From an uncultured Flavobacteriaceae bacterium (lineage in GTDB: Bacteria > Bacteroidota > Bacteroidia > Flavobacteriales > Flavobacteriaceae): a stretch of 64,000 nt of DNA. The notes below the pieces were generated by a model. That model saw only the letters and a list, made by a program, of their open reading frames with translations, ran no database searches and had not been told where the DNA came from. Of the stretch, positions 3,840 to 18,071 are shown piece by piece; the first letter of the stretch is position 1, and each line of letters begins with the position of its first letter. The position numbers and the translations under genes are program-made. The stretch covers positions 434,001 through 498,000 of the forward strand of contig CANMXP010000002.1 of the NCBI GenBank assembly GCA_947501845.1. Reading direction: 5' to 3'.

Positions 3840-5432
3840 TCAATCATTCCCATCACTCAACTTAATAACCTCATCAATCATGATATCTCTCTGATTGAAA
3901 ACTTCTTCAAAAGCACCACCACCATAAAGTTGACCTGCCAATGTTGCCTTGATATATTGTTTCACTTCGGTATGATAAGCGACAAAAGTAATTTTAGAAT
4001 CGGTACGCACATTTAAATAATCCTGAAAAGCAAATACCAAATCATCGCTCACTTCAAACGAATCAATAAAATCTTGCCTTGAAATGTTATCGTAAAGATG
4101 CCTGTCTTTTTCCAGCTCCTCAAATACAAAATAACCAATAAACCCTCGTCTTTGTAAAAAGGTTAGCGTTTCATTTTGCATACTATTATCTATTGGCACA
4201 AATACATCTGGAATAATACCCCCGCCACCATACACAATTTTTCCTGCGGGTGTGGTAAATTTTAATGAATCTGCCACTTTAATTTTATCGGGGTCTAAAA
4301 GTTCGCCACTATCTAATCTATCAAAATACTCATCATAATAATCTTTATTACCGTTTTTATATGAACGTTGGATAGAACGCCCTGTTGGCGTATAATAACG
4401 TGACACTGTTAGTCGTACGGCGCTACCATCACCTAAATCCATTTCACGCTGTACCAACCCTTTACCATAAGAACGACGCCCTACTATGGTTCCTTTATCA
4501 TTATCTTGTAATGCACCAGCAACAATCTCACTTGCAGATGCCGAATTTTCATCTATAAGTACATATACATGACCATCTTCAAAATCGCCTTTACCTGTTG
4601 CAAAGCTTTTTTCAATATTTCCACGCTTATTTTTAGTAAATAAGATAAGTTTGTCATCTTCTAAAAACTCGTCCGCTATTTGCTCTGAGATACTTAAAAT
4701 ACCCCCAGGGTTATTTCTCAAATCTAATGCAATTTCGGTAGCTCCCAATTCTAAAAGCCTGTCCAAACCTTTTTTAAATTCTTTATAAGTAGACTCGGCA
4801 AACCGGTTTACTTTTATATATCCTAATTTTTCGGTTAGCATATAAACAGCGTCTACACTTTTAATAGGAATATTACCGCGCTTTACTGTAAAGTTTAAAA
4901 GTTCTGGTTCACCTTTTCTGTATACTTTTAAATTAACTTTCGTATTAATAGGTCCTTTTAGTTTTTTAACCATTTCACCATCATTCAATCTATCTCCATA
5001 AAGCGTATCGCTATCGGCCATAATGATTCGATCGCCCCCTTTAATTCCAGCTTTAGCACTAGGCCCTCCTTCAATAGCCCTAATAACCGCTATAGTATCC
5101 TTATAGGGGTAAAAGCTAACACCAATACCTACAAAATCACCTTTCATCTCTTCCGCTACACGCTCCATAGCCTCTTTAGGGATATATACAGAATGTGGAT
5201 CCAGATTCTCTAAAATGCCATTAACCGTAACATCAACAATACTATCTGTGTTTATGTCATCAACATAATCATAATCAATATAGTCAATTAGTCTATTGAG
5301 TTTATCTTTTTTACTATTTGTAGAAAACAATCTATCTGGCGAATCTCTAAAATCTAATTTTCCGCCAATAAAAATGCCTGCCGCAATTGCAACACCCAAA
5401 ATGAATGGTAAATATTTTTTTTGAAATGACAT
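3840..5432 (-). CDS. S41 family carboxy-terminal processing protease
   Basis: A membrane-anchored protease that trims or degrades envelope proteins from the C-terminus. An uncleaved-looking N-terminal helix (about residues 8-24) places the rest outside the inner membrane. A PDZ domain covers roughly residues 100-185 (GIGVSFYPYK, GGPSAKAGIKGGD), followed by the S41 catalytic domain. The Ser-Lys dyad is S299 (in ENSASASEI) and K324 (RSYGKGLVQ), exactly 25 residues apart as in Prc. Length 530 is normal for the Bacteroidota form. Its start codon shares one base with the stop of the upstream dCMP deaminase gene, so the two form an operon. Confidence 0.93.
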   Translation of the reverse strand: MSFQKKYLPFILGVAIAAGIFIGGKLDFRDSPDRLFSTNSKKDKLNRLIDYIDYDYVDDINTDSIVDVTVNGILENLDPHSVYIPKEAMERVAEEMKGDFVGIGVSFYPYKDTIAVIRAIEGGPSAKAGIKGGDRIIMADSDTLYGDRLNDGEMVKKLKGPINTKVNLKVYRKGEPELLNFTVKRGNIPIKSVDAVYMLTEKLGYIKVNRFAESTYKEFKKGLDRLLELGATEIALDLRNNPGGILSISEQIADEFLEDDKLILFTKNKRGNIEKSFATGKGDFEDGHVYVLIDENSASASEIVAGALQDNDKGTIVGRRSYGKGLVQREMDLGDGSAVRLTVSRYYTPTGRSIQRSYKNGNKDYYDEYFDRLDSGELLDPDKIKVADSLKFTTPAGKIVYGGGGIIPDVFVPIDNSMQNETLTFLQRRGFIGYFVFEELEKDRHLYDNISRQDFIDSFEVSDDLVFAFQDYLNVRTDSKITFVAYHTEVKQYIKATLAGQLYGGGAFEEVFNQRDIMIDEVIKLSDGND

Positions 5433-13271: not shown

Positions 13272-13327
13272 GGTGTAAACTTGTATATAGATGCCTTAAT
13301 AAGGGCATCTATATACAACTTACCACA
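13272..13327. repeat. Palindrome of two abutted IS1595-type ends around TTAATAA
   Basis: The 15-mer TTGTATATAGATGCC (13281-13295) is followed by TTAATAA and then by its exact reverse complement (13304-13318), with weaker symmetry further out. The right arm (13304-13328) is a perfect 25-base inverted match to the right end of the IS element at 17486-17510. The left arm plus TTAATAA (13281-13302) is a perfect 22-base direct repeat of 17496-17517. It looks like two element ends placed end to end around the target sequence. It lies just downstream of the 77-residue membrane protein gene, where it could also act as a hairpin terminator. Confidence 0.8.
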
Positions 13328-13345
13328 ATACACTAAGACAAGAGT

Positions 13346-13608: not shown

Positions 13609-14031
13609 CTAAAGCAACTCAAAAGCTTTAAAACTATAAAACTCTTTACTATCACATATAACAAGATGATCTAACAATTCTATATTTAGAACGTCTGCGC
13701 CTTTCTTTATTTTTTTGGTAACCTGTTTATCTTGCAAACTAGGTGTTGTATCTCCCGAAGGGTGGTTATGACAAAGTATTATTCTTTTGCATTTCTTGGC
13801 TACTGCAAAATTAAATACTTCAACAGGATCTAAGCTATTTTGGTTTAACACGCCAATGGTAAGCAGTTCTATATACTCTATATCGTTTTTAGAGCTAAGA
13901 CCAATCGTCCAAAAGTATTCCTTTTTCCTGTGCAGTTTATTTTGTCTTAGAAGTATTTTACGCATGATTCGGGCAATATCACGAGAATCTTCTATGCGTG
14001 TATTTTCATTTTTAGGAATACGTACGTTCAT
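13609..14031 (-). CDS. JAB-domain RadC-like protein (short form)
   Basis: A 140-residue protein carrying the JAMM metalloprotease-like motif H88-x-H90-x7-S98-x2-D101 (LCHNHPSGDTTPSLQD). Full RadC proteins are about 225 residues with an N-terminal helix-hairpin-helix region. This one has only the MPN/JAB domain, a form common on mobile elements of Bacteroidota. The biochemical activity of RadC proteins is not settled. On the minus strand a perfect -7 element TATATTTG lies at 14056-14049, and its upstream promoter half was probably displaced by the IS inserted at 14074. Confidence 0.85.
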   Translation of the reverse strand: MNVRIPKNENTRIEDSRDIARIMRKILLRQNKLHRKKEYFWTIGLSSKNDIEYIELLTIGVLNQNSLDPVEVFNFAVAKKCKRIILCHNHPSGDTTPSLQDKQVTKKIKKGADVLNIELLDHLVICDSKEFYSFKAFELL

Positions 14032-14065: not shown

Positions 14066-14073
14066 TTAATAAA
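14066..14073. repeat. Target-site duplication, left copy (TTAATAAA)
   Basis: The eight bases TTAATAAA directly precede the left end of the IS element and are repeated exactly at 17511-17518 after its right end. Eight-base duplications are characteristic of the IS1595 family. Removing the IS and one copy would join the upstream region of the RadC-like gene to the ssb upstream region. Confidence 0.75.
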
Positions 14074-14097
14074 GGGAACTATATACCACATTACACC
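14074..14097 (+). repeat. Left inverted end of the IS1595 element
   Basis: GGGAACTATATACCACATTA and the next four bases align with the inward-reading right end (17510 back to 17487): GG, A, CTATATAC and TTAC are shared. It is more diverged than the other copies of this end in the region. Confidence 0.65.
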
Positions 14098-14126
14098 GCA
14101 AAAAAACTAGGCTATGAAAAAAAAGT

Positions 14127-14663
14127 TTAGTTTTTCGGTAAAGAGTCTTTATTGGTTTTGGAAAGAAGTAAAATTTCAGTTTGAAGATTTTTGGTATTCC
14201 GCTCCAACTTATTTATACTTCCTTGGATTAATAATAGTTTATTCTCTATTGCTTGTGTTTCTTTGGTTTCTAGTGTTTTCTGGCTATTTGTTTTAAGTAA
14301 AAGGGTTAAAACAGCTATCACAAGAGCTAGTATTGGAATTAATATCTGTACAAATGTTCTTGCCCATTCTTTTATCAAATTTTCATTTTGCTTTATGTAT
14401 TTAAAGTCAGAAAAGGCACTAAACCCTGTTTTGGTTAGAGCCAATCCATCAACTTTATAGTCAGTGAATTGCACCTCCTCGTTAGTAAAAAGCGATGCGA
14501 AAATAATTTCACACTCTTCCTGACTACAGTTAAGTTTTTCTCTTAGTACAGAAAAATCAGTTCCAATATGAAAGTCACCTCCTAATCCCCTGTCTGTCCT
14601 TGTTTGAATAAATTTTGGGGTTAGTATTTTTAAAGTTTTATGCCTTTTTCTGTTATACCTCAT
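14127..14663 (-). CDS. IS passenger: single-helix membrane protein with coiled coil
   Basis: A 178-residue protein inside the IS element, divergent from the transposase. It has an N-terminal soluble part with a conserved-looking TDRGLGGDFHIGTDFSVLREKL segment cut here at position 22-43, a transmembrane helix at about 103-124, and a C-terminal helix with heptad-like spacing (IQGSINKLERNTKNLQTEIL) that should form a coiled coil. The soluble N-terminal 100 residues precede the helix. No family recognised. A 60-codon frame on the opposite strand (14114-14296) overlaps it and is treated as a shadow. Confidence 0.65.
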   Translation of the reverse strand: MRYNRKRHKTLKILTPKFIQTRTDRGLGGDFHIGTDFSVLREKLNCSQEECEIIFASLFTNEEVQFTDYKVDGLALTKTGFSAFSDFKYIKQNENLIKEWARTFVQILIPILALVIAVLTLLLKTNSQKTLETKETQAIENKLLLIQGSINKLERNTKNLQTEILLLSKTNKDSLPKN

Positions 14664-14743: not shown

Positions 14744-15661
14744 ATGTTTAACCAAGAAGTAAAATCCGTTTTAGACCTTATAAAAGCCTTTCCAGATGAG
14801 CAATCTTGCATTGACCATTTAGAGTTGTTACGTTGGAATGGTAACGTTGTAAGTCCTTTTGATTCTACTTCTAAAGTTTATAAATGTAAAGGAAATAAAT
14901 ACAAGTGCAAAAACACAGGTAAATACTTCAATGTTAAGACAAACACTATTTTTGATAATACTAAAATGGAATTACAAAAATGGTTTCTTGCTATTTGGTT
15001 GGTAACATCACACAAAAAAGGTATTTCATCTTTACAATTAGGGCGTGATTTGGGTATAACTCAAAAATCTGCTTGGTTTATGTTGCAACGTATTAGAAAC
15101 TGTTTTGGCTTAGATAATAACGACCAATTAAGCGGTGAAGTTGAAATTGACGAAACTTATGTAGGTGGTAAAATGGCTAACAGACCTGCAAGAATTAGAA
15201 AAGACCAAACTGAAGAAGTAAAAGAGCATTATAAGAAATCTGCTGTTTTAGGCATGGTAGAACGCAATGGTAACGTTAGAGCGAGACACGTAAAAGACAC
15301 TACTCAAAATAGCTTAATACCCCCAATAATGAATAATATTAGCTTTGGTTCTACAATATATTCAGACGAATTAAAAGCATATAATATTTTAGATAGAGTT
15401 TACGACCATAAAGCAGTAGCACATGGTAGAAGTGAATATGTTAGAGGACGTATTTCTACAAACTCAATAGAAAGCTTTTGGGCGTTGTTAAAACGTGGTA
15501 TTTATGGCATATATCATTTTACTTCTAAAAAACATTTACAGTTTTATGTTGATAAATTTGTGTTTAGATATAATACTCGCAAAGGTTCTGAAAATGATAG
15601 ATTTAATTTACTTTTGTGTAATATCGAGAATAGAATAACTTATAAAGAATTGATTAAATGA
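14744..15661 (+). CDS. IS1595 family (ISXO2-like) DDE transposase
   Basis: A 305-residue transposase that cuts and joins the element ends. Catalytic residues: D136 (EIDETYVGGK), D208 (YSDELKAYN) and E243 or N240 (NSIESFWALLKRG). The ITQKSAWFMLQRIR helix-turn-helix motif at 105-118 is characteristic. The N-terminal zinc ribbon, normally two Cys pairs, is degenerate: where family members have CPxC this one has SPFD at 37-40, leaving only C48 and C55. The stop codon overlaps the start of the RhuM gene (ATGA). The catalytic domain looks intact, so the element may still be active. Confidence 0.93.
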   Translation: MFNQEVKSVLDLIKAFPDEQSCIDHLELLRWNGNVVSPFDSTSKVYKCKGNKYKCKNTGKYFNVKTNTIFDNTKMELQKWFLAIWLVTSHKKGISSLQLGRDLGITQKSAWFMLQRIRNCFGLDNNDQLSGEVEIDETYVGGKMANRPARIRKDQTEEVKEHYKKSAVLGMVERNGNVRARHVKDTTQNSLIPPIMNNISFGSTIYSDELKAYNILDRVYDHKAVAHGRSEYVRGRISTNSIESFWALLKRGIYGIYHFTSKKHLQFYVDKFVFRYNTRKGSENDRFNLLLCNIENRITYKELIK

Positions 15662-16815
15662 GTAATTTAGAGAATGAAACAAATTTTTTATTTTATACTT
15701 CCGATAGCGGAACAACTAATATACAAGTTATATTAGGAGAAGATACCGTATGGGTAAGTCAGTTAAGCATGGCTGAAATATTTGACACTACAAAACAAAA
15801 TATTAGTCTTCATTTAAATAATATATATAAAGAAGGAGAATTAAATAAATTCGCAACTGTCAAGGAAATCTTGACAGTTCAAAAAGAAGGGTCTAGAGAA
15901 GTACAAAGAAATATAGAGTTTTATAATTTAGACGCCATAATATCAGTAGGATACAGGGTAAGTTCTTCAAAAGCAACACTATTTAGAATATGGGCAACAA
16001 ATATTTTAAAGGAGTATTTAACTAAAGGTTTTGCATTAGATGACGACAGATTAAAACAAGGTAAAAACTTATTTGACAAAGATTACTTTGATGAATTAAT
16101 TGAACGTATCAGGGAGATACGTGCTTCTGAAAGACGTTTTTACCAAAAAATCACTGATATATACGCTACTGCAGTTGATTATAACAGAAAAGCAACAATC
16201 ACGCAAACATTCTTTGCTACTGTTCAAAATAAATTAGAATACGCAATAACACATCATACAGCGTCAGAACTAATTAAGCTAAGGGCTAGTTCAAAAAAGC
16301 CCAATATGGGGTTGACAAGTTGGAAAAATGAGAAAAAAGGAGGAAAAATACTAAAATCCGATGTTGGAGTTGGAAAAAATTATTTATCACAAGAGGAAAT
16401 ATCCGAATTGAATAGAATTGTTACCATGTATCTTGATTATGCAGAAAATCAAGCTAGTAAGGGCAGGCTAATGGAAATGAAAGATTGGGTTGATAGACTA
16501 GATGCTTTTCTTATATTTAATGAATATGATATTTTAAAAGATGCTGGAAAAATAAGAGCTCAAGTTGCTAAAAAATTTGCAGAAAAAGAATATGAAAAGT
16601 TTAGAGTAATTCAGGATAAGGAATATAAATCCGATTTTGATAAAATGATAGAAGGAGTAAAGAAAGGAGAATTACCTAAAGAAAAGAAAATTGAAATTCA
16701 AGAACCTTTATCAGATCTCAACCAAAAACTAAAACAAGGATTAAACTATAATCCCAAAGAAAAACAAGTTTCTGCTTTAAGTTTAAAGAGCGTAAAGAAG
16801 CATAAAGACAAATAG
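15658..16815 (+). CDS. rhuM: RhuM family protein, translationally coupled to the transposase
   Basis: A 385-residue protein of the virulence-protein RhuM family. The conserved N-terminal domain reads VWVSQLSMAEIFDTTKQNIS, then REVQRNIEFYNLDAIISVGY and SSKATLFRIWATNILKEYL, covering about residues 30-120. This N-terminal region resembles DNA-binding phage-regulator domains; the molecular function is unknown. A middle helical region and a C-terminal part (YLSQEEISELNRIVTMYLDY ... DAFLIFNEYDIL) follow, then a lysine-rich tail of about 60 residues. Its ATG lies in the transposase stop (ATGA), implying coupled translation from one mRNA, so it behaves as an IS passenger gene. Confidence 0.87.
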   Translation: MSNLENETNFLFYTSDSGTTNIQVILGEDTVWVSQLSMAEIFDTTKQNISLHLNNIYKEGELNKFATVKEILTVQKEGSREVQRNIEFYNLDAIISVGYRVSSSKATLFRIWATNILKEYLTKGFALDDDRLKQGKNLFDKDYFDELIERIREIRASERRFYQKITDIYATAVDYNRKATITQTFFATVQNKLEYAITHHTASELIKLRASSKKPNMGLTSWKNEKKGGKILKSDVGVGKNYLSQEEISELNRIVTMYLDYAENQASKGRLMEMKDWVDRLDAFLIFNEYDILKDAGKIRAQVAKKFAEKEYEKFRVIQDKEYKSDFDKMIEGVKKGELPKEKKIEIQEPLSDLNQKLKQGLNYNPKEKQVSALSLKSVKKHKDK

Positions 16816-16823
16816 TTACTATG

Positions 16824-16958
16824 TTAGCTATTACCCTTTCTTGAAATTAAAGTAAGAATAACAAAAAATACAGAACAACCTAATGCAGTAAACCAAAACA
16901 TACAGCCAAGTAATAAGCTAATTAAGACTCTTATGTAGATGTTTTTTAGGTAAATCAT
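16824..16958 (-). CDS. Possible 44-residue membrane peptide inside the IS
   Basis: An ATG at 16958 on the minus strand opens 44 codons: MIYLKNIYIRVLISLLLGCM, then FWFTALGCSVFFVILTLISR and KGNS. It is one long hydrophobic helix with a basic N-terminal flank and a basic end. The frame is convergent with rhuM and ends nine bases after its stop. AATATTTG at 16982-16975 (minus) is one base off a -7 element, at a workable distance. Size and composition resemble type I toxins or small membrane proteins, but the case rests on composition alone and it may be chance. Confidence 0.35.
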   Translation of the reverse strand: MIYLKNIYIRVLISLLLGCMFWFTALGCSVFFVILTLISRKGNS

Positions 16959-16972
16959 TAATCAAAAATACA

Positions 16973-17007
16973 AACAAATATTGATGTTAGTGGAATTAAT
17001 ATTTGTT
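16973..17007. repeat. 10-bp stem hairpin in the IS right part
   Basis: AACAAATATT (16973-16982) and AATATTTGTT (16998-17007) are exact inverse complements with a 15-base loop. The hairpin opens the gene-poor 16.96-17.5 kb stretch, in which I otherwise see only the two right-end modules and a coding remnant. Confidence 0.5.
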
Positions 17008-17070
17008 AAGCACGCTCATTGAAAAGTAAGAACTCAATTTGACTAAGGTCAGTAAGAGCTTATGTTTTGT

Positions 17071-17187
17071 GAATCTGAATTAGCAGATTTCAAAATGTAG
17101 GTTGAACAACTTACATACTTCAAAAAAGCACATTCCCTAGTGCGAAACTAAACTTTACTTTCTGGTGGTAAATTGTATATAGATGCC
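17071..17187 (+). ncRNA. Structured right-end module 1 (three hairpins plus internal IS end)
   Basis: Three successive hairpins. H1 is 17071-17090: stem AATCTG/CAGATT, loop AATTAG. H2 is 17095-17116: a 9-pair stem with one G-T wobble, loop GAAC. H3 is 17128-17143: stem GCAC/GTGC, loop ATTCCCTA. They are followed by GGTGGTAAATTGTATATAGA-TGCC, the internal copy of the element end. The same order with changed but still pairing stems occurs at 17398-17510. Whether it acts as DNA (transposase-binding end) or is transcribed as RNA cannot be decided from sequence; the ncRNA type is tentative. Confidence 0.45.
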
Positions 17188-17189
17188 GT

Positions 17190-17279
17190 TCCAAAGAACA
17201 CGATGATAAATTAAAGATCAACACCTCTTTAGACGACGTATTAAAGGCTTCCGTTCCTAAGCCCAAAGAAAAGGAATAG
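17190..17279 (+). pseudogene. 3' remnant of a small coding gene between the two IS right ends
   Basis: Directly after the internal element end an open frame without its own start reads SKEHDDKLKINTSLDDVLKA, then SVPKPKEKE and a TAG at 17277-17279. The Lys/Pro-rich tail and codon use look like a genuine protein C-terminus. The 5' part is cut off exactly at the internal end (17187), suggesting the element once terminated there and was inserted in, or recombined into, this gene. Family unknown. Confidence 0.5.
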
Positions 17280-17397
17280 CCTCGGTTTTGACCGTAAGTT
17301 AGGGTTAAGTCCTGGACTAACATTAACTAGTGCGACACGTTATTTGAGATAAAACAACCTTTGATTTGATTATTCGGCAAGATGCTCACGCTCTGGA

Positions 17398-17510
17398 AAT
17401 CTGAATAAGTAGATTCTATACGTGGATTAAAGGACTTCACTCAAAAAAATAGCCGTTCTAGGCTAGATTCAAAAACTATTCTTTCTTGTGGTAAGTTGTA
17501 TATAGATGCC
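17398..17510 (+). ncRNA. Structured right-end module 2 (three hairpins plus outer IS end)
   Basis: Second copy of the module at 17071-17187. H1 is 17398-17415: stem AATCTG/TAGATT, loop AATAAG. H2 is 17422-17440: weaker stem GTGGA/TTCAC with a G-T wobble at the same place as in module 1. H3 is 17450-17465: stem TAGCC/GGCTA, loop GTTCTA. The outer right end of the element, TGTGGTAAGTTGTATATAGA-TGCC, closes it. H3 stems differ completely from module 1 yet pair, which is compensatory change. Function, and whether it is transcribed, are unknown. Confidence 0.45.
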
Positions 17511-17518
17511 TTAATAAA
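17511..17518. repeat. Target-site duplication, right copy (TTAATAAA)
   Basis: Exact repeat of 14066-14073, immediately after the right end of the IS. Seven of these bases also occur at 13296-13302 in the abutted-end palindrome. Confidence 0.75.
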
Positions 17519-17679
17519 GGAAAATTATTCATTTACAAACGACTACAAACATTTACAAACGATATTAAATAAGTAATTACCGAATAACATTTGGAGGCTG
17601 TTTCATATTTGCAGTGTCGAATTTATACTGGGCTTGTTTCAGTAACTCATTCGCAAAACTCTAAAAGTAAATTAAAAAG

Positions 17680-17700
17680 ATCCTGGAACGAGTTCAGGAT
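17680..17700. repeat. Small palindrome in the ssb leader
   Basis: ATCCTG (17680-17685) pairs with CAGGAT (17695-17700) with near-symmetry between (GAAC/GTTC). It lies 35 bases before the ssb start in the otherwise gene-free 17519-17735 stretch. This kind of CCTGAA...TTCAGG palindrome is a common intergenic repeat in Bacteroidota. Confidence 0.45.
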
Positions 17701-17735
17701 TATGTATTAACTGTTTAACATTAAAATTTAAAATT

Positions 17736-18071
17736 ATGAACACGCTTAGAAACAAAGTACAGTTGATTGGTAACTTAGGAAATGACCCAGAAATTATTAA
17801 TCTAGAATCAGGAAAAACACTCGCTAAATTTGCTATCGCTACTAACGAAAGCTACACCAATAATGATGGTGAAAAAATCACAGATACACAATGGCACAAT
17901 GTGATAGCCTGGGGCAAAACGGCCGAGATTATTGAAAAATATGTCACAAAAGGAAAAGAAATCGCTATTGAAGGTAAATTGACCTCTCGTAGCTACGATG
18001 ATAAAGAAGGTAATAAACGATACATTACCGAAGTTGTTTGTAATGAACTTTTGATGCTAGGTGGTAAATAA
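17736..18071 (+). CDS. ssb: Single-stranded DNA-binding protein, short form
   Basis: A 111-residue OB-fold protein that coats single-stranded DNA. Family motifs: NKVQLIGNLGNDPEI at 6-20, KFAIATNESYTNNDGEK, TQWHNVIAWGKTAEI, YVTKGKEIAIEGKLTSRSYDDKEGNKRY. The usual glycine-rich linker and acidic DDDIPF-type C-terminal tail are absent: the protein stops after the OB fold at ELLMLGGK. It therefore cannot recruit partner proteins in the standard way and is likely an accessory SSB. It is next to the mobile region and may be a remnant of an older integrated element. Confidence 0.9.
   Translation: MNTLRNKVQLIGNLGNDPEIINLESGKTLAKFAIATNESYTNNDGEKITDTQWHNVIAWGKTAEIIEKYVTKGKEIAIEGKLTSRSYDDKEGNKRYITEVVCNELLMLGGK

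What the first reader, a model, noticed from the sequence alone, without database searches (positions are those of the whole stretch)
17071..17510. Two right-end modules with the same hairpin order and covarying stems
Modules at 17071-17187 and 17398-17510 each have H1 (AATCTG stem, AATNAG loop), H2 with a G-T wobble at the same position, H3 (GCAC/GTGC versus TAGCC/GGCTA, loops both rich in TTC..TA) and then the element end. Stem 3 changed entirely but still pairs, evidence for selection on structure. It may be a structured RNA made by the element, or a folded single-strand DNA end.
Basis: seen in the sequence. Interest (0 to 1): 0.75.

Follow-up and report, generated by a model that had tools for sequence, protein, structure and literature searches.

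The report
Structured RNA at targeted transposon end
The two repeated hairpin modules are the ends of two stacked jumping genes, each encoding a conserved folded RNA that usually points at one landing site beside a DNA-protection gene, which raises the untested possibility that the RNA helps choose where the element lands.

Summary
Two modules share hairpins H1 and H3, and homologues covary strongly (H1, 23 sequences: 87.7% of cells paired, covariation 0.785 against 0.301 in shuffles). G·T pairs outnumber A·C, so the + strand is the structured one, as in an RNA read toward the right end. Rfam has no match over the modules.

The modules are right-end regions of two IS1595-family transposons, one truncated, stacked upstream of an accessory ssb gene. 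Among relatives, 27 of 31 module-bearing ends face a host repeat array, 21-22 bp away in 23; 0 of 43 module-less ends do. The array is unique in this genome. A second transposase clade, 42-46% identical to the window's, shares module and target. Three relatives with a different end structure lie in attC-like repeats.

Best reading: a new structured RNA of site-specific, oriented IS1595 transposons, probably helping target choice. That role is inferred: no RNA-target complementarity was found, four module-bearing elements lie elsewhere, and phylogenetic contrasts are too few.

The parts
13281..13295 (+). remnant right end of an older element (TTGTATATAGATGCC)
   Evidence: followed 8 bp later by a left end
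13304..13328 (-). left terminal inverted repeat of an older element, next to the remnant right end (R-8bp-L arrangement)
   Evidence: flank TTAATAAG, 7 of 8 identical to the right flank of the 17510 end
14066..14073 (.). left copy of the 8-bp target duplication TTAATAAA
   Evidence: 8 of 8 identical to 17511-17518
14074..14099 (-). left terminal inverted repeat of the stacked composite (element A)
14127..14663 (-). 178-aa ORF of element A, no Pfam match at E 0.001
14744..15661 (+). transposase of element A, IS1595 family (DDE_Tnp_IS1595)
   Evidence: PF12762 E 3.8e-42
15658..16815 (+). passenger gene, RhuM family
   Evidence: PF13310 E 1.4e-110
16975..17005 (+). hairpin P0' (loop GTTAGTGGA), 5' part of module 1
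   Evidence: 8 of 11 pairs with changes on both sides in 9 sequences; covariation 0.571 against 0.274, 0 of 500 shuffles
17029..17147 (+). structured module 1 (element A): P2 17034-17040/17099-17105, P3 about 17062-17069/17091-17098, H1 17071-17077/17084-17090, H3 17128-17131/17140-17143
   Evidence: (103.3 bits; a seed of the model)
17173..17187 (+). right terminal inverted repeat of element A, 44 nt after H3; followed by remains of element B, not by chromosome
17196..17279 (+). 3' end of a passenger gene of element B (tail ...LDDVLKASVPKPKEKE, stop TAG); the rest of B's left part is missing
   Evidence: the same tail sits upstream of a right end in L018, L020, L021, L026 and L091; also found in L053 and L154
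17283..17294 (+). hairpin P0 (CGGT-TTTG-ACCG), three nucleotides after the stop codon
   Evidence: changes on both sides in 4 cells, 2 of 4 pairs, 15 sequences; covariation 0.352 against 0.237
17356..17470 (+). structured module 2 (element B): P2 17358-17367/17424-17433, small hairpin 17376-17379/17383-17386, P3 17387-17390/17421-17424 (17424 can pair in P2 or P3), H1 17398-17403/17410-17415, H3 17450-17454/17461-17465
   Evidence: (91.3 bits; a seed of the model)
17496..17510 (+). right terminal inverted repeat of element B; the end that faces the array
   Evidence: 45 nt after H3
17511..17518 (.). right copy of the 8-bp target duplication TTAATAAA
17532..17562 (+). host repeat array upstream of ssb, the landing mark (30 of 31 match to consensus, 21 bp from the transposon end)
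   Evidence: single copy in the own genome; also upstream of ssb in genomes without an element there
17736..18071 (+). accessory single-strand-binding protein gene (111 aa)
   Evidence: PF00436

Best explanation
The two modules are the right-end regions of two different IS1595-family transposons that inserted one after the other at the same place upstream of an accessory ssb gene; the second (B) has since lost its left part, so its end lies next to the first (A). Each module encodes a conserved structured RNA of roughly 150-230 nt, read toward the transposon end, whose last hairpin sits 43-46 nt from that end. The module-bearing end usually faces a host repeat array at a fixed distance. Most likely mechanism: the RNA, perhaps processed from the 3' part of the transposase or passenger transcript, binds transposase or the transposition complex at that end and helps direct it to the array or to whatever binds the array, so that the element lands next to it with this end toward it. 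Shown: structure, strand bias, position, association with the target, orientation, target duplications. Inferred: transcription, binding to transposase, and a causal role in target choice.
For: Covariation of H1, P2, P0', P0 (few changes) and the whole model. Strand bias of wobble pairs. The motif scan found H3 in 24 of 32 module-bearing ends and in 2 of 3 attC-site ends, always 43-46 nt from the end; such geometry is hard to explain for a purely regulatory 3' UTR. 27 of 31 module-bearing ends face the array, 21-22 bp away in 23 of the 25 same-strand arrays; 0 of 43 module-less right ends do. A later check of relatives not scored before gave 5 more elements with 8-of-8 duplications; I see no module in them and no array on either side. 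L039 and L048 inserted on the ssb side of the array, in the opposite direction, and the right end still faces the array. In L042 the module lies at the end left of the transposase, duplication 8 of 8, and that end still faces the array. A transposase clade 42-46% identical to the window's shares module and target, with module-less clades between on the tree. No transposase residue cleanly marks the module-bearing elements. Two module-less elements inside a well-supported group of module-bearing ones (L040, L069) lie off the array although their hosts keep the array upstream of ssb; L069 still has a P0-like hairpin, as if the rest was lost.
Against: No recurrent complementarity between RNA and target or array. 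Four module-bearing elements (L005, L026, L036, L084) are not at the array, and in the hosts of L005, L036 and L084 I see no element in the 330 bases printed upstream of ssb. Module and target are clustered on the tree; only 3 independent contrasts, none opposite, sign test p 0.25; the tree is a quick one and warns that the second clade's long branch may be misplaced. Module labels for L021 and L039 were given by eye (degenerate copies), and other diverged modules by P0, H3 or eye. The score cut of 19 of 31 for the array was set after seeing the scores. The 44-nt end DNA next to H3 is also conserved in these elements and could itself be the targeting signal. No transcription data were available.
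Confidence: 0.45

Rival explanations
1. The module is a 3'-UTR-type regulatory or stabilising RNA of the transposase/passenger transcript (expression control, processing signal or insulator against read-through into host genes). Targeting is done by transposase and end DNA alone, and the link with the array is shared descent.
For: In several elements the 5' hairpin appears to start a few nucleotides after a stop codon (TAGCATCGG...). Module and target are strongly clustered on the tree. p-MULT/TnGBS transposons show oriented targeted insertion tied to a transposase signature and asymmetric inverted repeats; the passages seen mention no RNA (PMC3942029).
Against: Constant 43-46 nt spacing between H3 and the end (24 of 32 module-bearing ends); module and target shared by a clade 42-46% identical; in L042 the module lies at the other end relative to the transposase yet still faces the array; no clean transposase signature.
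Confidence: 0.33
2. The RNA is a base-pairing guide, like a bridge RNA or omega RNA, whose loops recognise the target sequence.
For: RNA at a transposon end, target-facing orientation; IS1111 elements, which belong to the family with bridge RNAs, include members that target attC (cited title in PMC11208160), and three relatives here lie in attC-like repeats.
Against: Complementary runs (7 or more, G-U allowed) between RNA and target do not recur at any RNA position above shuffled targets: 52 to 100 of 100 shuffles at least as high in the four target tests (24 elements, 25 elements). One of three tests against the element's own end reached 4 of 100, not corrected for seven tests. Pairing with gaps, or by RNA running into flanking DNA, was not excluded. 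No nuclease or DEDD recombinase gene was identified, but not every ORF was searched.
Confidence: 0.08
3. The module acts as folded single-stranded DNA or a cruciform at the element end.
For: It is placed at an end, and hairpins could form in DNA.
Against: Excess of G-T over A-C cells on one strand in H1 and P2, a DDE transposase with 8-bp target duplications, and a long-range helix P2 enclosing other stems.
Confidence: 0.07

Closest known systems
IS1595-family transposons with passenger genes
   Same: DDE transposase PF12762, terminal inverted repeats starting GG, 8-bp target duplication, passenger genes
   Different: A conserved structured RNA at one end and insertion at a fixed distance and orientation from a host array. 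Six of the ten literature searches named IS1595; their listings, and passages of four listed papers, showed nothing of the kind.
IS110/IS1111 elements with bridge RNA
   Same: Non-coding end carries a structured RNA; elements are sequence-specific; the IS1111 group has attC-targeting members (PMC11208160, passages and a cited title)
   Different: Transposase is DDE not DEDD; inverted repeats and 8-bp target duplications; no recurrent RNA-target complementarity found
IS200/IS605 elements with omega RNA
   Same: RNA scaffold near the right end (resemblance recalled)
   Different: No TnpB-like match among the six window proteins searched; DDE transposase
TnGBS / p-MULT transposons
   Different: Another transposase family; no end-encoded RNA mentioned in the passages seen
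Tn7 at attTn7
   Same: One designated end faces a chromosomal mark at a fixed distance (recalled)
   Different: Target recognised by a dedicated protein (recalled); no such match among the six window proteins searched

Membership tests
IS1595 family | DDE transposase of the ISXO2/IS1595 type | tested here: met
   PF12762, E 3.8e-42, profile 1-153 of 153
IS1595 family | terminal inverted repeats and 8-bp target duplication (8 bp recalled for the family) | tested here: met
   Outer duplication TTAATAAA 8 of 8 in the window; the best pair of ends has an 8-of-8 duplication in 50 of the 88 loci examined
IS110/IS1111 with bridge RNA | DEDD recombinase | tested here: not met
   Transposase matches PF12762 only
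IS110/IS1111 with bridge RNA | RNA loops complementary to the target | tested here: not met
   No recurrent complementarity above shuffled targets; ungapped runs only
Rfam families | match at the curated score | tested here: not met
   0 matches in the window at gathering score; at E up to 1 in 16800-17800 two weak matches, both downstream of the modules; 0 in L055, L061, L079, L044, L049
[quoted passage not shown]
   27 of 31 module-bearing ends at the array, 21-22 bp in 23 of 25 same-strand arrays; 4 of 31 elsewhere; 0 of 43 module-less ends
Transposon-encoded non-coding RNA | RNA is transcribed and stable | not testable with these tools
   no RNA-seq data available
Transposon-encoded non-coding RNA | conserved secondary structure with covariation | tested here: met

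The most novel reading that the evidence does not exclude
A family of DDE (IS1595-type) transposons uses an end-encoded structured RNA as part of the transposition complex to choose its landing site: one RNA type for the array upstream of ssb, another for integron-like attC repeats. This would be RNA-assisted targeting by a DDE transposase without CRISPR or a DEDD recombinase.
Probability: 0.25. Interest if true: 0.92.

Novelty: new variant of a known kind. Interest (0 to 1): 0.72.

Why it matters
If the RNA takes part in targeting, it adds a DDE transposase family to the short list of transposons that use their own RNA, in small elements in which, of the window's genes used as queries, only the transposase recurs throughout (where loci were chosen by it), and it gives a directly testable model: delete or re-pair the stems and map insertions. 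Even without that role it defines a structured RNA family absent from the Rfam release searched, and a landing site in Flavobacteriaceae, next to an accessory ssb gene, where elements pile up one behind another.

Tried and rejected
Base-pairing guide: no recurrent complementarity. Known RNA family: none over the modules. Module as part of the host ssb leader: rejected, because ssb sites without an element show the array but no module that I can see (for example L114, L115, L117, L118, L133), and in L039 and L048 the module end points away from ssb. Transposase signature: only position 226 (K in 19 of 22, 4 of 5 and 4 of 4 module-type rows against 10 of 37) and a V/I column. RNAalifold on a first alignment gave no structure, so the structure was set by hand from column pairs and checked by counts; seeds of model R1 match it by construction. 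The A2 structure fits P3 badly (50% of cells paired) because rows are offset there. attC-site ends: related to type 1 only by a short motif, the A-run plus H3 and the spacing; R1 does not hit them. A possible pairing of their RNA with the attC insertion point was noticed by eye in two of three and is not used as evidence. L062 was labelled as attC type with module in the tree but its right end was not found, so its module is unseen. L055's target duplication did not match. G1024, 75% identical to L079's transposase, shows no module that I can see and an AT-rich site; it is not in the tree or in the 43.

Rows dropped before the count: 17 of the 80 loci in which no right end was settled (L045, L060, L062, L067, L070, L072, L078, L080, L082, L086, L100, L101, L104, L108-L111); three ends that abut another element are a class of their own (window 17187, L091 7117, L098); L042's module-less end and L145 were left out. 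The 80 loci are the best of 406 relatives found. Of the loci only L005, L018, L020, L021 and L026 entered, seven, none. Some of the 43 ends have no 8-of-8 duplication (for example L089, L094, L103, L106). Eleven further regions relatives were fetched afterwards: L211, L212, L213, L216 and L217 have 8-of-8 duplications, I see no module, and array scores are 13-16 of 31 on both sides; L219 is the stack next to L053's element; L214, L215, L218, L220 and L221 gave no such pair of ends. Left flanks of 31 of the module-less elements score at most 19 of 31, within the range of shuffled flanks (up to 21). P0' was counted on 9 of 10 sequences found and P0 on 15 of 16 (L037 has one more loop base, L056 is a near copy of L054).

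Full report
WHAT IS THERE. The window (from a 5.37-Mb genome in 75 contigs; nearest relatives Flavobacteriaceae) holds an IS1595-family transposase (14744-15661, PF12762), a RhuM-family passenger gene (15658-16815) and an accessory ssb gene (17736-18071). The outer target duplication TTAATAAA is identical at 14066-14073 and 17511-17518. Two right ends lie at 17187 and 17510. Between them is the 3' end of a passenger gene (17196-17279) that in other genomes sits in a second transposon clade (L018, L020, L021, L026, L091). The simplest history, inferred: element A and element B stacked at one site, then loss of B's left part. R-8bp-L junctions of stacked elements are seen in L091 and L098.

THE STRUCTURE. 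Module homologues were aligned. H1 on 23 sequences: 7 of 8 pairs have changes on both sides, 87.7% of cells paired against 61.0% in shuffles, covariation 0.785 against 0.301; slid controls at most 0.184. P2 on 15 sequences: 0.428 against 0.227, 0 of 500. The whole hand-set structure: 0.388 against 0.226, with P3 poorly aligned there. The 5' hairpins P0' (9 sequences, 0.571 against 0.274) and P0 (15 sequences, 0.352 against 0.237, 2 of 4 pairs changed on both sides) add to this. Shuffle controls do not remove relatedness; the slid controls keep it and also fall far below, but the structure was fitted to these sequences, which favours it in that control. In H1 there are 33 G·T and 1 A·C cells on 23 sequences; on the 15 of A2, P2 has 27 and 14, H1 25 and 3, H3 4 and 4, in all 56 against 21 (p 8e-5, cells not independent). 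So the + strand is the structured one. Folding of single sequences gave z between -1.66 and -3.19 for the seven + strand sequences tried, and 0.11 and -1.48 for the two minus strands tried. Rfam has no match over the modules.

WHERE IT OCCURS. Model R1 hit 28 places at E up to 1 in 88 held sources; of the top 18 (79.8 bits or more) 15 are its own seeds, L006 is the same record as L037, and L042 and L005 are new. In 397 family genomes, 12 had a match at E up to 0.01. Ten of the 12 also gave a transposase match in the 299-genome search (G232 only at 5.0e-4). G248 did not: it keeps a module 1.1 kb upstream of its disrupted ssb gene, beside a damaged right end and what looks like another left end. 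G378 is not in the listing; its locus has a transposase fragment. R1 misses diverged modules (for example L047, L054), which were recognised by H3, P0 or eye. A scan for an A-run followed by a hairpin within 30-58 nt of the end found it in 24 of 32 module-bearing ends, always at 43-46 nt, and in 2 of 3 attC-site ends (43, 44); in 44 module-less ends it found 5 hits, at 32-42 nt.

THE TARGET. Of 31 module-bearing ends with readable flank, 27 have the 31-base array within 90 nt (scores 23-31 of 31; single-letter shuffles of the flanks reach up to 21), 25 on the same strand, 23 of these at 21-22 bp; L021 and L052 at 9 and 11; L039 and L048 have it reversed at 9 and 19. Because the array is itself periodic, 9-11 and 21-22 may be one register apart. 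Of 43 module-less right ends none does (best 18). Fisher p 2.7e-16 ignores phylogeny, and the cut of 19 was set after seeing the scores. Left flanks of 31 module-less elements reach at most 19, and five further elements fetched later (8-of-8 duplications, no module that I can see) have scores of 13-16 on both sides. The array is host sequence: it lies upstream of ssb in genomes without an element there and has a single copy in this genome with up to 3 mismatches. L039 and L048 sit on the ssb side of the array with the right end still toward it; L042 has its module on the side opposite to the usual one relative to the transposase, and that end still faces the array, with an 8 of 8 duplication. 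L039's and L021's modules are degenerate and were labelled by eye.

AGAINST. Four module-bearing elements are elsewhere (L005, L026, L036, L084). In the hosts of L005, L036 and L084 I see no element in the 330 bases printed upstream of ssb (the L005 host shows a short end-like scar); L026's host has an end remnant there. Module-less L040 and L069 also have the array without an element in their hosts. On a quick tree of 68 transposases module state needs 4 changes (shuffled mean 24.8), but independent contrasts number 3 (on average 2.4 same way, 0 opposite), p 0.25, and the tree warns about the long branch of the second clade. No recurrent RNA-target complementarity exists in ungapped runs. So the causal role is not shown.

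SECOND TARGET. L055, L061 and L079 have right ends at the same point of large imperfect palindromes ending in GTTAG-type cores, like integron attC sites, with similar repeats elsewhere in L055, L062 and L079; L062's left flank is of the same kind. The identification as attC is by eye. L061 and L079 carry a different RNA-like structure; L055's end differs again. With L062 they form one transposase clade (98*).

LITERATURE. Ten searches listed no report of a structured RNA in IS1595 elements or of their insertion at ssb or attC. Listings were seen, plus passages of PMC3942029, PMC11208160, PMC4859172, PMC9229058 and PMC9778887. PMC9229058 reports two IS1595-type copies interrupting Shewanella integrons and says most ISs there lie in coding regions. 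The library lacks most subscription journals.

VERDICT. A real, selected structure: a structured RNA family, absent from the Rfam release searched, at the target-facing end of site-specific IS1595 transposons. Its participation in target choice is the best-supported mechanism, but inferred.

Noticed in passing
L055, L061, L079 (right ends 8110, 3969, 7744) and L062 left flank near 4918: Related IS1595 elements inserted at one point inside attC-like palindromic repeats, with different right-end structures; an IS1595 counterpart of the IS1111 elements that target attC.
   Followed up: partly
window 17532-17562; also upstream of ssb in loci: Host array of about 10-bp units (TTTACAAACG) upstream of the accessory ssb gene, single copy in this genome; its binding protein is unknown.
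   Followed up: partly
window 13281-13328; L033 1651-1690; L091 7103-7140; L098 2955-2992 and 6183-6220: Right end, 8 bp, left end arrangements: repeated insertion at the same spot stacks elements.
   Followed up: partly
window 13609-14031: RadC-type (JAB domain) gene next to the elements; in L043 it lies between the element ends, in G248 it lies next to ssb.
   Followed up: partly
L040 7631, L069 7871, L209 5540: Elements without a module close to module-bearing or attC-site relatives, all off the array; L069 keeps only a P0-like hairpin, a possible natural deletion.
   Followed up: partly
L129/L137 (G248): The ssb gene of a same-genus genome looks disrupted: codons 1-57 lie at 2546502-2546672, a matching C-terminal piece about 54 kb away, and another ssb-like gene (61% identity) follows the first piece.
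   Followed up: no
window 17671-17743 minus strand: Weak match to the sRNA family BTncRNA_FopS (22.3 bits, gathering 56, E 0.86), probably chance.
   Followed up: no
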